64,000 bases of DNA from a virus: IMG/VR virus record IMGVR_UViG_3300021185_002167, positions 1-64,000 of that record; one strand, given 5' to 3'. Positions 20,103 through 47,879 of the stretch are shown in pieces. A model generated the notes under the pieces. It was given only the letters and a program-made list of their open reading frames with translations, did not search any database and had not been told where the DNA came from. Both the position numbers and the translations under genes were made by a program. Numbering within the stretch: the first letter of the stretch is position 1; the number at the start of each line of letters is the position of its first letter.

Positions 20103-20138
20103 TAGTTGCTATACCTCCATCCCTCCGGGTGATAATAT

Positions 20139-20167
20139 ATTATACCATAAAAACAAGCATTTGTAAA
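20139..20167 (-). promoter_or_regulatory. Minus-strand early-type promoter (antisense to late genes)
   Basis: On the minus strand: GTTTACA, a 17-bp spacer, then TATAAT preceded by TATGG, identical in form to the plus-strand promoters of this phage. It fires leftward from about 20132 into the 3' end of the Sm-like gene and uvsW, where no minus-strand gene is evident. It is the only member of the promoter family on this strand. Confidence 0.8.
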
Positions 20168-20213
20168 CGGTTTTAGTGAAAATAATTAAATTAATTTTAT
20201 ATTCAATTAATCG

Positions 20214-20242
20214 TTTACATTTAGCCAAAAGTATGGTATAAT
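20214..20242 (+). promoter_or_regulatory. Early-type promoter for the 55-47-46 operon
   Basis: TTTACA / 17 bp / TATAAT with TGG before the -10; predicted start near 20249. It is back-to-back with the minus-strand promoter at 20139-20167. Confidence 0.88.
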
Positions 20243-20266
20243 AATACATTATGGAGAAAAAATAAT

Positions 20267-23788: not shown

Positions 23789-23858
23789 GGGGCGCGACTA
23801 GGGTCAATCTCCTACTTGCAATAGGAGATACTGTGGGGCAGAACCACACGCTCCACCA
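23789..23858 (+). tRNA. tRNA-Ala(UGC)-like RNA with reduced D-arm
   Basis: GGGGCG (23789-23794) pairs with CGCTCC (23849-23854), including a G3:U70 wobble, the alanine identity element; discriminator A and an encoded CCA follow (23855-23858). The anticodon arm is an 8-bp stem with a 7-nt loop CTTGCAA (anticodon TGC, T33 present). The T-arm is TGTGG/CCACA but with loop GGCAGAA instead of TTCRANN, and the D-arm is reduced to GAC-TAGG-GTC. 70 nt with CCA, shorter than the usual 76. It may be a minimal tRNA-Ala, a decayed tRNA, or part of a larger tRNA-like RNA. Confidence 0.55.
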
Positions 23859-23864
23859 CTCTTT

Positions 23865-23935
23865 GGAGCTGAAGTTCATGTGGAATGAACGACCTAAAGT
23901 TAGGTAAGTCGAAGGTTCGAATCCTTCCAGCTCCA
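23865..23935 (+). ncRNA. Second tRNA-like structure without a normal anticodon arm
   Basis: GGAGCTG (23865-23871) pairs fully with CAGCTCC (23928-23934) and is followed by discriminator A. The T-arm is canonical: GAAGG-TTCGAAT-CCTTC. A GTTC/GAAC arm (extendable to 6 bp) encloses ATGTGGAAT with a D-loop-like GG. Where a 17-nt anticodon arm should be there is only a 14-nt palindrome, ACCTAAAGTTAGGT. Position 8 is A, not T. No CCA is encoded. Either a degenerate tRNA or a tRNA-like domain working with the structure 6 nt upstream. Confidence 0.5.
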
Positions 23936-23950
23936 CTTCCATTATGTGAG

Positions 23951-23987
23951 AACAACACTTTCTCACAATTATTTTCATTAATTTCAC
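23951..23987 (+). repeat. 37-bp upstream repeat, copy 1
   Basis: Begins AACAACACTTTCTCACAATT and ends TTAATTTCAC. Identical to the copy at 47584 and one base different from the copy at 26216. In all three the repeat ends exactly 8 bp before the TTTACA -35 hexamer. In this copy the first bases also close a 7-bp hairpin with GTGAGAA (23946-23966). Confidence 0.92.
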
Positions 23988-23995
23988 AAAAACCG

Positions 23996-24024
23996 TTTAC
24001 ATTTGCGCTGAAATAGTGTATAAT
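23996..24024 (+). promoter_or_regulatory. Early-type promoter for the VWA/metalloprotease gene
   Basis: TTTACA / 17 bp / TATAAT; the extended -10 is GTG rather than TGG. Predicted start near 24031; AAGGA precedes the ATG at 24049. Confidence 0.85.
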
Positions 24025-24048: not shown

Positions 24049-26214
24049 ATGATTAAACACAAAAGCACTCTCGCAAAACTTCTTGCTAAAGAAAATGTTA
24101 CTGTACAATATGGTAACTATTCAACAGCATGGTTTGACATTAAAGATAGAATACTCGGTCTTCCAATGTGGAAAGATATGGGTAGTGATGTAAGTGATTT
24201 ACTTATTGGCCATGAAGTTGGCCATGCGTTATTCACACCATACGAAGGTTGGCATGATAGCCCTGAAAAGCTACAAGGCTGTCCACGTACATATATCAAT
24301 GTAATCGAAGATGCAAGAATCGAAAGACATATCAAAGATTCTTATATTGGTCTAGTTGGTCCTATGGCAAGAGGCTATAAAAAGCTTTTTGATGATGGCT
24401 TCTTTGGAGAAGAGTTCACTACAATGAACTGGGACAAAGTAAAGCTTATCGATAAAATTAATCTTAAAGCTAAAGTTGGAGCTCATCTTGACGTTCCTTT
24501 AGACGACGTAGAGATTGAATACTACAACAGGGCAATGACAACTGAAACATTCGAAGAAGTTCTTGACCTAGTAAGAGATGTTCTTGCGTATACAAAAGAA
24601 AACGAAGAAGAGCTTATTGAAAAGCCAGAGCCACAAGAAGACGAGCCTGAAGTAGGTGATGACGAAAATAATAAAGACGAAATGACTCCACAAGGTCATG
24701 ACGATGCTGAAGGCGATCAACCTAAAGAAACTTTGTCAAACGAATCAGATGAAACAGAAGTTGAAGATGATGCACCACAAGAAAAGCAAAATGCTCAGAA
24801 TCCAGTAGATGATGACGTTGCAATTTCAGACTTAAACTTTAGACAAAGAGAGAAAAACTTACTCGATATAAGAGAAGACAATACACAAACTCTTATTGGT
24901 AACGAATTCAATAAAGACGTTTTTAATAAGATTGTTATACCTTATAAAGATCTTGCTCAACAAAGAAAAGAGAATTCTAATAAAAACCAAGAACATTCAG
25001 AATGGCTTGCTGATTTAGTAAACAAACAAGCTCTTGGTTACAAAGCGTATAGTAAAGCAGTAAAGAAAGATGTTAACTACGCAGTAAAAGAATTCGAAAT
25101 GAGAAAAGCTGCTTTTAGATACTCAAGATCTCAAACAGCTAAGACTGGTTCTATAGACGTAAACAAAGTATGGTCATATAAAACTAATGAAGACATATTC
25201 TCAAGAGTAACTCAGTTAGCTGATTCTAAAAATCATGGTATGGTTATGATTATAGACTTTTCAGGTTCTATGTGCGATGTCATGAACCATGTTTTAGATC
25301 AGCTCTTTCACCTAGTAACATTCTGTAAAGCAGTTAATATTCCATTCGAAGTATATGGATTCACAAGCTGTAATACATTACTTGGTGGTGGATATTCATG
25401 GGATGGCGATACTATCGACACTTCAAAACAACTTGACTCTGAGGTATATCACCAAAAACTTTCAATGCCACAGCTTGTAACGTCTAAGCTTAAAAAAGCT
25501 GACTTCGAAGAAGCAATGGAACATATCTTTTTAAGAAGTAGTCTCAGTTCAGAGCATTATGGAGAAAGATCTATTATGTCTCCAAACGAAGAGTATGGTT
25601 CAACACCTCTTAACGAAGCTCTTATTGCTTCACATAGAATTATTGATAGCTTTAAAAAGACTCATAATGTCGAAAACATGAATTTCGTTGTTATTTCAGA
25701 TGGAGATACTAATGGTACTTCGATTTGTAAAAAAGAAATTGGTGTGAACAGAGTTAAGACTCACCCAAGCTATTCAAGACATACTGAAATGAATATTAAC
25801 ATTATGGGTAAATCTGTAAAGCTTGCTGGCAATAGAAGAGAAGGTACTCAGTCTTTACTTAACAACCTTGCTAAAAGATTTAATACAACTAACATTGGAT
25901 TCTTTATTGCTAATGATGGTTCACAATTTAAAAGTAAAATCGCTGAAACACATGGTGAGTACTGGTTAGATGATGAACTACAAAAAGAGTACAATAAAGA
26001 ATTTAACAAGAAAAGATGCGTAACTCTTAAAGGCTTAGGCTATAAAGAACTTTATATTCTTAAGAGTAAAAATCTTTCAGTTGAAACTACTGACTTTAAT
26101 CCAGCTGAAGAAGCATCAAAAGGTCAGTTAACAACAGCATTTAAGAAGTTTAGTAAGTCTAAAAAGCTTAACAAAACACTATTAACTAATTTTGGTAAGA
26201 TAGTTGCTGAGTAA
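24049..26214 (+). CDS. CobT-like VWA protein with N-terminal HExxH metallopeptidase motif
   Basis: 721 residues. Residues 55-59 are HEVGH, with YINVIEDARIE (82-92) supplying a plausible third zinc ligand, as in gluzincins. An acidic, probably disordered linker (about 190-265) leads to a C-terminal von Willebrand A domain with MIDAS motif DFSGS (about 403-407) and VVISDGDTNGT. This layout is like CobT-type partners of MoxR/CobS AAA+ ATPases; the ATPase follows at 26324. In marine phages such genes are often labelled cobalamin biosynthesis, but nothing here shows chelatase activity. More likely a AAA+-driven remodelling or proteolysis pair. Target unknown. Confidence 0.8.
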   Translation: MIKHKSTLAKLLAKENVTVQYGNYSTAWFDIKDRILGLPMWKDMGSDVSDLLIGHEVGHALFTPYEGWHDSPEKLQGCPRTYINVIEDARIERHIKDSYIGLVGPMARGYKKLFDDGFFGEEFTTMNWDKVKLIDKINLKAKVGAHLDVPLDDVEIEYYNRAMTTETFEEVLDLVRDVLAYTKENEEELIEKPEPQEDEPEVGDDENNKDEMTPQGHDDAEGDQPKETLSNESDETEVEDDAPQEKQNAQNPVDDDVAISDLNFRQREKNLLDIREDNTQTLIGNEFNKDVFNKIVIPYKDLAQQRKENSNKNQEHSEWLADLVNKQALGYKAYSKAVKKDVNYAVKEFEMRKAAFRYSRSQTAKTGSIDVNKVWSYKTNEDIFSRVTQLADSKNHGMVMIIDFSGSMCDVMNHVLDQLFHLVTFCKAVNIPFEVYGFTSCNTLLGGGYSWDGDTIDTSKQLDSEVYHQKLSMPQLVTSKLKKADFEEAMEHIFLRSSLSSEHYGERSIMSPNEEYGSTPLNEALIASHRIIDSFKKTHNVENMNFVVISDGDTNGTSICKKEIGVNRVKTHPSYSRHTEMNINIMGKSVKLAGNRREGTQSLLNNLAKRFNTTNIGFFIANDGSQFKSKIAETHGEYWLDDELQKEYNKEFNKKRCVTLKGLGYKELYILKSKNLSVETTDFNPAEEASKGQLTTAFKKFSKSKKLNKTLLTNFGKIVAE

Positions 26215-26215
26215 G

Positions 26216-26252
26216 AACAACACTTTCTCACAATTATTTTCACTAATTTCAC
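26216..26252 (+). repeat. 37-bp upstream repeat, copy 2
   Basis: One base differs from copies 1 and 3 (CACTAA instead of CATTAA). Lies directly after the VWA gene stop and 8 bp before the -35 of the CobS-like gene promoter. Confidence 0.9.
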
Positions 26253-26323: not shown

Positions 26324-27454
26324 ATGAAAAACTTGAAAAAATCAACACAAATCATTTTGGAAGAGCTTGCTGTCAGATATCCTGACCAAACTCATTTCAG
26401 AAAAAATGCTATCGTCGAAATTGGCGAAAGCTTTGGATACACCGGCAAAGACTGGGATCCATTGATGAGCAAAACTAACAGAGTAAAAATTGGTACATAT
26501 GACCTCGAAGGTTTCATATCGCCAATTAGAGAAATCGTTTCTAATTCTGTAGTTCAACCAATCCCAGCAGCTGCAGCTCAAATGCAGTCAATTGTTAACG
26601 AAGAAAAGACTTTCGCAAAAACAGATCCTACATTTATTGCTTGGGGAGCATTCACTGACATCGTAAAAATCGTAAAGTCAAATATGTTTTACCCAACATA
26701 TATTTCAGGTCTTTCAGGCAATGGTAAAACATTCATGGTAGAACAAGCTTGCGCTAAAGTAGGCAAAGAATTTATCAGAGTTCAAATCAATCCTGAAACA
26801 GACGAGGATGATTTACTTGGTGGGTTCAGACTTATCAATGGAGAAACAGTTTTCTCTAAAGGTCCTGTTCTTAAAGCAATGGAGAATGGAGCAATCCTTC
26901 TCTTAGACGAAATCGATAGAGCAACAAACAAAATCATGTGCTTACAAGGAATCCTCGAAGGTAAACCAGTACTTGTCAAAAAGACTGGCGAAACAATATC
27001 GCCTGCAGAAGGATTCAATGTAATCGCAACTGCTAATACAAAAGGCAAAGGTTCTGAAGATGGCAGATTTACAGCGGCTTCAATCATTGATGATGCATTC
27101 CTTGAAAGGTTTACTATTTCAGTCGATCAACAGTTCCCTTCTCTTAACATTGAGAAAAAGATTGTTATTAAACACATGGAAAAGTTTGATTGCTTAGATA
27201 CTGACTTTGCTGAAAAGCTAGTTGTTTGGGCTGACATTATCAGAAAAACATTTTACGATGATGGTGTCGATGAAGTCATTTCAACAAGAAGACTTTGCCA
27301 CATTGTTCAAACGTTTTCGATCTTTAATAAAAGAGACAAAGCAATTGACTTATGTATTTCAAGGTTTGACGAAGATACAAAAGAAGCATTCCTTGACTTA
27401 TACAGTAAAGTAGATGCTGAACAAATTATAGCACCAGAGGAGTCAAATGTTTAA
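26324..27454 (+). CDS. cobS: MoxR/CobS-like AAA+ ATPase
   Basis: 376 residues. Walker A GLSGNGKT (129-136), DEDDLLGGF, Walker B LLLDEIDRA (about 191-199), sensor 1 VIATANTKG, and RFTISVDQQFPS, matching the MoxR/CobS clade. The N-terminal ~100 residues are an additional helical region. In the family these ATPases act with a VWA-domain partner, here the gene just upstream that shares the same upstream repeat. Name cobS follows phage convention; cobaltochelatase activity is not implied. The 3' end overlaps the next gene by 8 nt. Confidence 0.85.
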   Translation: MKNLKKSTQIILEELAVRYPDQTHFRKNAIVEIGESFGYTGKDWDPLMSKTNRVKIGTYDLEGFISPIREIVSNSVVQPIPAAAAQMQSIVNEEKTFAKTDPTFIAWGAFTDIVKIVKSNMFYPTYISGLSGNGKTFMVEQACAKVGKEFIRVQINPETDEDDLLGGFRLINGETVFSKGPVLKAMENGAILLLDEIDRATNKIMCLQGILEGKPVLVKKTGETISPAEGFNVIATANTKGKGSEDGRFTAASIIDDAFLERFTISVDQQFPSLNIEKKIVIKHMEKFDCLDTDFAEKLVVWADIIRKTFYDDGVDEVISTRRLCHIVQTFSIFNKRDKAIDLCISRFDEDTKEAFLDLYSKVDAEQIIAPEESNV

Positions 27455-47553: not shown

Positions 47554-47579
47554 GGGGGAGTTTCGACTCCCCTTTTTTT
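47554..47579 (+). terminator. Intrinsic terminator of the bS21-uvsX-41 operon
   Basis: GGGGAGT-TTCG-ACTCCCC, a perfect stem with a UUCG tetraloop, followed by seven T. Confidence 0.93.
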
Positions 47580-47583
47580 CACA

Positions 47584-47620
47584 AACAACACTTTCTCACA
47601 ATTATTTTCATTAATTTCAC
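47584..47620 (+). repeat. 37-bp upstream repeat, copy 3
   Basis: Identical to copy 1 over 37 bp; ends 8 bp before the -35 of the next promoter. Confidence 0.92.
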
Positions 47621-47628
47621 TCGAACCG

Positions 47629-47657
47629 TTTACAACTGCTCCCAACTGTGGTATAAT
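47629..47657 (+). promoter_or_regulatory. Early-type promoter for the small-gene cluster
   Basis: TTTACA / 17 bp / TATAAT with TGG; predicted start near 47664; AAGGAG before the ATG at 47685. Confidence 0.9.
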
Positions 47658-47684: not shown

Positions 47685-47879
47685 ATGACATACAAAGAAC
47701 AACCAATATCAATAACCGAAGAGGTTATTGCAATGAGCACCAGCGCAATTCTAAGAGAATTGGACGGTGGAATGAAACCAGGAATTTGCGAATCTTGGGA
47801 CGAAAGAGTCGGAATGACAGATAGAGATTGGGCTATCGAAAAATTAATAGCTAAAAGACTAAAGGAGGCAGGAGTATGA
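47685..47879 (+). CDS. Small hypothetical early protein
   Basis: 64 residues, acidic, soluble (ITEEVIAMSTSAILRELDGG, then WDERVGMTDRDWAIEKLIAKRL). First gene of a cluster of five small overlapping genes under a repeat-associated early promoter, the setting of host-takeover genes. No family recognised. Confidence 0.65.
   Translation: MTYKEQPISITEEVIAMSTSAILRELDGGMKPGICESWDERVGMTDRDWAIEKLIAKRLKEAGV

What the first reader, a model, noticed from the sequence alone, without database searches (positions are those of the whole stretch)
47584..47657. 37-bp repeat at fixed distance from three early promoters
Copies at 23951, 26216 and 47584 (AACAACACTTTCTCACAATT...TTAATTTCAC) are identical or differ by one base, and each ends exactly 8 bp before TTTACA. 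The other early promoters lack it. Such conservation outside genes over more than 20 kb implies selection: a binding site for an activator or repressor, or an UP-like element defining an early sub-class.
Basis: seen in the sequence. Interest (0 to 1): 0.75.

Follow-up and report, generated by a model that had tools for sequence, protein, structure and literature searches.

The report
Swappable switch upstream of phage early promoters
In a marine relative of phage T4, a 37-base DNA repeat sits at a fixed distance before a small set of early promoters; related phages carry different repeats at the same promoters, which points to an exchangeable control element marking a special group of early genes, although what binds it is unknown.

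Summary
The 37-bp repeat occurs at 23951, 26216 and 47584 (two copies identical, one differing by 1 base), each ending 8 bp before TTTACA-17-TATAAT. A fourth, partial copy (24 nt) lies outside the window at 82001 of the 128-kb record. The phage is an uncultured T4-like marine myophage related to HTVC008M. All 63 exact occurrences of the core box in 2.9 million viral contigs lie just upstream of such a promoter.

Relatives change the picture. The marked promoters (peptidase, cobS, the gene after gp41, two near 81-82 kb) are a conserved sub-class. Within one phage their upstream elements resemble each other far more than between phages (pept-cobS p=5e-5); 33 comparisons involving other early promoters show no comparable effect. 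But the sequence is phage-specific: at least eight unrelated modules occupy the same place. Cultured HTVC008M has its own at three loci, 28/28/38 bp before its -35. Recurrent half-sites lie at 10-11-bp steps from the -35.

Best reading: a two-part upstream promoter element (UP-like proximal part plus a distal protein site), shuffled as a cassette, resembling PeSLs of T4-type phages. Binding, activation and the cognate factor are inferred. Part of the 37-bp identity reflects recent copying within the genome.

The parts
23951..23987 (+). 37-bp upstream element, copy 1 (identical to copy 3)
23945..23967 (+). 8-bp stem-loop TGTGAGAA-CAACACT-TTCTCACA overlapping copy 1; imperfect at 26216, absent at 47584
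23996..24024 (+). early promoter TTTACA-17-TATAAT of the peptidase gene
24049..26214 (+). gene controlled: peptidase (phrog_459)
   Evidence: E 1e-175
26216..26252 (+). 37-bp upstream element, copy 2 (1 mismatch), starting 1 nt after the peptidase stop codon
26261..26289 (+). early promoter of cobS
26324..27454 (+). gene controlled: cobS / MoxR-type ATPase (phrog_249)
47555..47579 (+). separate GC-rich intrinsic terminator GGGGAGTTTCGACTCCCC-TTTTTTT just upstream of copy 3
   Evidence: sequence; same arrangement in relatives
47584..47620 (+). 37-bp upstream element, copy 3 (the finding)
47629..47657 (+). early promoter of the gene following gp41
47685..47879 (+). first gene controlled at locus 3: 64-aa protein with no family match
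20176..20187 (-). inner half-site only (AATTATTTTCAC) in front of the leftward promoter at 20167, divergent from the gp55 promoter
20139..20167 (-). leftward early-type promoter of the divergent pair

Best explanation
The repeat is the upstream half of a composite early promoter that marks a sub-class of about five early transcription units in HTVC008M-like marine T4-like phages. It has two parts. The proximal part, about 8-25 bp before the -35 box, is an A/T-rich, helically phased TTTTCAC / GTGAAAA element of UP type, probably contacted by the alpha C-terminal domains of host RNA polymerase. The distal part, about 25-50 bp before the -35 (CAACACTTTCTCACAATT here), is most likely the site of a sequence-specific DNA-binding protein acting from upstream on the same helix face as polymerase, i.e. 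an activator-like position. In other phages a different module fills the distal place. The modules are exchanged as cassettes and spread between loci of one genome by recombination. Shown: the class, the fixed position and phasing, the phage-specific modules, the within-genome sharing, one recent replacement. Inferred: protein binding, activation, and whether the factor is phage- or host-encoded.
For: All 63 exact core boxes in IMG/VR precede TTTACA-17-TATAAT at a fixed gap; four sit 11 bp closer than the rest of their type. Within-genome similarity of upstream regions: pept-cobS 20.7 vs 11.0 between genomes (25 dereplicated genomes, p=5e-5), pept-gp41-next p=0.002, cobS-gp41-next p=1.5e-4; 33 comparisons involving control early promoters have p of 0.01 or more. 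In 80 dereplicated class promoters TTTCAC ends exactly 8 bp before the -35 in 19 of 28 occurrences and 18-19 bp in 7 more; GTGAAA at 7, 17, 27, 37; TGTTACA at 25, 36, 47, 58; phase concentration 0.87-0.93 at 10-11 bp. TGTTACA/TGTAACA occurs in 18/94 class vs 1/149 other promoters, GTGAAA/TTTCAC in 49/94 vs 14/149. HTVC008M has CGTTGAWWTATAAAGGTT upstream of peptidase, cobS and a third gene, 38/28/28 bp before TTGACT. At 47584 the box persists without a stem-loop although a strong terminator already lies upstream.
Against: No cognate regulator was found: Pfam/PHROG scans of 75 small proteins gave a DsbA-type DNA-binding protein but no MotA/AsiA-type or clear HTH activator (only the 25 best families per scan are listed). 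Several unrelated modules coexist in one genome (G000, G001, G019, G020), which needs several factors or sequence-independent function. Period-10 repeats favour 10-bp slippage deletions, so phasing could partly be mutational. Stem-loops with partner changes at cobS suggest an RNA or terminator role at some loci.
Confidence: 0.55

Rival explanations
1. It is a PeSL-like terminator-promoter cassette: the upstream module is mainly a stem-loop that ends transcription of the preceding unit and serves as homology for recombination; the early promoter follows.
For: Class regions are more structured than other early promoters (mean z -1.71 vs -0.69, p 2e-7); terminator-like hairpins in 28% of class vs 7% of shuffles; stem partners change together at cobS (GCAGAAT/ATTCTGC, CAGAA/TTCTG, TGAG/CTCA); many modules are inverted repeats.
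Against: Most strong hairpins are the separate GC-rich terminator at the gp41-next locus. There the box has no 5' arm yet stays identical. A terminator does not explain exact spacing to the -35 or 10-11-bp phasing. Genes downstream of the peptidase and cobS promoters are syntenic, not shuffled.
Confidence: 0.22
2. Neutral intragenomic copying: promoter regions are homogenised by gene conversion between short repeats and the element has no function of its own.
For: P-to-D replacement at 47584 relative to 95.6%-identical L101; copies in one genome are nearly identical while orthologues differ.
Against: Homogenisation is restricted to one promoter class and not seen at other early promoters that share the same core. 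The outer box is retained at the 82-kb locus in 5 of 9 orthologues at 69-73% protein identity found by protein search alone, the rest carrying another module in the same place. The -35/-10 spacers between copies are not homogenised.
Confidence: 0.12
3. Operator for a phage repressor of changing specificity (stoperator-like), silencing these genes late in infection or in superinfecting phages.
For: Phage-specific module shared by a set of dispersed promoters, palindromic or tandem operator shapes.
Against: Sites lie upstream of the -35 instead of over the promoter; no repressor gene found; several module types per genome.
Confidence: 0.08

Closest known systems
PeSLs (promoter early stem-loops) of T4-type phages (Arbiol 2010, Comeau 2014; primary papers not held, known through PMC4503421, PMC4177764, PMC3950731 and own knowledge)
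   Same: Repeated intergenic cassette with a strong sigma70-like early promoter, often with a stem-loop next to it, shared within a genome and shuffled by recombination in T4-like phages
   Different: Conserved part is a positioned upstream DNA element, not mainly a terminator; present only at a fixed promoter sub-class in front of core genes; sequence is phage-specific and helically phased with the -35
UP elements of T4 early promoters (PMC2988021, PMC1524935)
   Same: A-rich sequence directly upstream of GTTTACA-type -35 boxes, bound by alpha CTD
   Different: Here only a sub-class has the extra 20-50 bp distal module, which is not A/T-tract-like and lies further upstream than an UP element
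T4 middle promoters (MotA box)
   Same: A phage-specific cis-element defining a promoter sub-class
   Different: The MotA box replaces the -35 at -30; here the -35 is intact, the element is upstream, and pelagimyophages lack motA and asiA (PMC7029224)
Stoperators of cluster A mycobacteriophages (PMC6550527)
   Same: Dispersed intergenic sites whose sequence varies between related phages
   Different: Those are repressor sites of temperate phages; no repressor or lysogeny gene found here

Membership tests
PeSL cassette | strong sigma70-like early promoter in the repeated unit | tested here: met
   TTTACA-17-TATAAT with TGG extension at most loci
PeSL cassette | effective stem-loop terminator as part of the unit | tested here: inconclusive
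   stem at 23945 and weak ones at 26211 and 82001; none at 47584, where a separate GC terminator precedes; termination itself not testable
PeSL cassette | recombination between copies shuffles gene modules in hyperplastic regions | tested here: not met
   peptidase-cobS order conserved in relatives; upstream modules themselves are exchanged. The gp41-next region was only partly examined
UP element | A/T-rich alpha-CTD subsites at about -38 to -59 | tested here: met
   A-rich last 10 bp and T-rich 10 bp before it in class promoters; covers the inner part only
UP element | dependence on alpha CTD | not testable with these tools
   needs in vitro transcription
MotA-dependent middle promoter | MotA box at -30 replacing the -35; motA gene | tested here: not met
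   -35 TTTACA intact; no MotA or AsiA family listed for 75 proteins scanned
Stoperator / phage operator | cognate repressor encoded by the phage | tested here: inconclusive
   none recognised among the proteins scanned; not all ORFs scanned

The most novel reading that the evidence does not exclude
HTVC008M-like marine T4-like phages, thought to lack middle-type regulation, possess a dedicated regulon (peptidase, cobS, gp41-next and others) controlled by a transcription factor whose DNA specificity turns over between phages, with binding modules replaced in concert at several promoters of one genome.
Probability: 0.3. Interest if true: 0.8.

Novelty: new variant of a known kind. Interest (0 to 1): 0.58.

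Why it matters
These phages are relatives of the abundant pelagimyophages, and T4's early and middle regulators (alt, modA, asiA, motA) are reported absent there (PMC7029224), so how expression is timed is open. A conserved promoter sub-class with exchangeable upstream modules gives a concrete target. Because cultured HTVC008M carries its own version at three promoters, the idea can be tested in the laboratory. It also shows cis-elements turning over completely while the set of target promoters stays fixed.

Tried and rejected
Pure stem-loop explanation: the stem is not conserved among the four copies. Host-genome site: the core box occurs once in GTDB genome contigs, in a fragment that itself looks like a related phage (next to gp41). 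IHF site: ATCAACACTTT resembles the core of the IHF consensus by eye only; not tested and not pursued. MotA box: absent. HTVC008M and Melnitz do not use TTTACA-17-TATAAT, so the window's element itself was not expected there; HTVC008M's own element was found instead. A wide pattern search with HTVC008M's element gave several hits unrelated to promoters, so outside HTVC008M-like phages that motif is less specific than the window's box. blastn of the locus against the phage collection gave only chance hits. First relatives (L093-L114) were found by exact box and are biased; conclusions on conservation rest on protein-based searches.

Full report
Observation. The three 37-bp copies are as described, two identical and one with a single change, each 8 bp before TTTACA-17-TATAAT. 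Chance is excluded (3 against 0.01 expected for the 20-nt core with 3 mismatches). The record G000 is 128,059 bp and holds a fourth core at 82001 that shares 24 nt and then continues as ...CACCAAAAAGTGAAAATAATCC.

Setting. The window encodes T4-type proteins: gp55 late sigma, gp41-type helicase, cobS, peptidase, gp45, gp44, regA, gp59, gp32, a late-transcription coactivator, curli genes. Nearest isolates by cobS and gp41 are Pelagibacter phage HTVC008M, Methylophilales phage Melnitz and cyanophages at about 50-64% protein identity, so the phage is an uncultured relative of these. About 20 early promoters of the form TTTACA-17-TATAAT, most with a TGG extension, were found in the record.

Anatomy. 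Relatives at about 80% DNA identity show two inner forms after a shared outer box. In the window it is ...AATTATTTTCATTAATTTCAC-N8-TTTACA (form D). In most relatives it is ...AATTATTTTCAAAAAAAGTGAAAATAATCG-TTTACA (form P), a dyad of TTTTCA and TGAAAA arms. At 47584 the relative L101, 95.6% identical over 10.7 kb, has form P while the window has form D, the form of the other two window copies. The simplest reading is recent copying within the genome. So identity of the three copies does not by itself prove selection on 37 bp.

Promoter association. In IMG/VR (2.9 million contigs) the core was found 27 times in the window's version and 36 times in a sister version (CAACACTTTTCTGTCAAYTATTTTCA). 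Every one of the 63 precedes TTTACA-17-TATAAT at a fixed gap, the four exceptions being 11 bp closer (the script listed those four as unmatched because their gap of 8 is below its limit, and the printed sequences show the promoter). Many of the 63 come from near-identical contigs; there are 30 distinct contexts.

The class. Orthologous promoters were collected by protein-based searches and from long contigs. In sister phage G001, peptidase, cobS, gp41-next and the 81-kb locus carry CAACACTTTTCTGTCAAYT. G008 has TGTTACA-type repeats at three loci, G006 a GTTATAnnnnTATAAC module at two, G007 an identical 34-nt GGCTAATTATTTTGCAAATAAATGCAAATAACCC at cobS and the promoter before it, L052 AACATGCATGTT at two. 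Other phages mix modules (L049, L060, G020). Quantitatively, local alignment scores of the 69 nt upstream (last 3 nt excluded) are higher within than between genomes for pept-cobS (20.7 vs 11.0, p=5e-5, n=25), pept-gp41-next (p=0.002) and cobS-gp41-next (p=1.5e-4). For 33 comparisons involving six other conserved early promoters and gp55 there is no comparable signal: smallest p 0.01, uncorrected.

Position and phase. In 80 dereplicated class promoters TTTCAC ends exactly 8 bp before the -35 in 19 of 28 occurrences, across phages with unrelated distal modules and with TTTACA or TGTACA -35 boxes; seven more lie at 18-19. GTGAAA ends at 7, 17, 27, 37 and TGTTACA at 25, 36, 47, 58. Circular concentration is 0.87 at 10 bp and 0.93 at 11 bp. 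These positions match alpha-CTD subsites for the proximal part and upstream activator sites for the distal part (general knowledge). Caveats: period-10 repeats can also delete by 10 bp through slippage, and shared ancestry is only partly removed by dereplication.

Cultured example. HTVC008M does not use TTTACA, but upstream of its TTGACT promoters for peptidase (87316), cobS (89810) and a third gene (140259) it has CGTTGAWWTATAAAGGTTYT or near matches at 38, 28 and 28 bp from the -35 (distances counted on the printed sequences). The same phenomenon with another sequence makes the finding testable in culture. A collection search with this motif also found sites unrelated to such promoters.

Terminator and stem-loop rival. 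Class regions are more structured and carry terminator-like hairpins in 28% against 7% of shuffles, mostly the GC-rich terminator at gp41-next. At cobS the stem arms change together between phages. At 47584, and in L101, L093, L112 and L102, the 5' arm is missing while the box stays identical. So the box is constrained as DNA at least at that locus, and a hairpin role may be added at cobS and peptidase. PeSLs, described as promoter-terminator motifs that mediate modular shuffling in T4-like phages (cited in PMC4503421; originals not held), are the closest known kind.

Regulator. No MotA- or AsiA-type protein and no clear HTH activator was listed for 75 small proteins; a DsbA-type DNA-binding protein is present. 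Pelagimyophages are reported to lack alt, modA, modB, asiA and motA (PMC7029224). Whether host or phage supplies the factor is open.

Verdict. Observation confirmed; sub-class interpretation supported and extended; mechanism (protein-bound upstream element plus UP-like part, shuffled as a cassette) inferred at about 0.55.

Noticed in passing
window 23865-23935: A tRNA gene just upstream of the peptidase promoter, missed by ARAGORN but scored 43 bits by Rfam, with an unusually short anticodon loop. A second tRNA-like stretch ending CTCCACCA precedes it (about 23790-23858).
   Followed up: partly
window and relatives G003, G004, G006, G007, G012, G020: The -35 hexamer type (TTTACA, TGTACA, TTGACA, TTTACT) and the bases just before it are nearly uniform within many phage genomes but differ between phages, as if promoter recognition were evolving in concert.
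   Followed up: partly
window 20131-20245: Divergent early promoter pair upstream of gp55; the leftward promoter has no long ORF downstream and would transcribe antisense to the preceding gene. A divergent pair is also seen in relatives including HTVC008M.
   Followed up: no
L288 (NHBP01000004.1): A contig binned as a Planctomycetaceae MAG carries gp41 and this promoter element; it looks like a phage contig in the wrong bin.
   Followed up: partly
window 3851, 48675, 56377: TATAAATAG-type T4 late promoter motifs (repeat family D7).
   Followed up: no
L007:559 of G000 and orthologues: Another conserved early promoter is preceded by CAACTCCTTATCACC..GCGGA within a long gapped inverted repeat in several relatives.
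   Followed up: no
peptidase promoters of L015, L027, L029 and G019: The GGTGATAAGAGTGCTAA module occurs there in reversed orientation compared with L037, L049 and L126.
   Followed up: no
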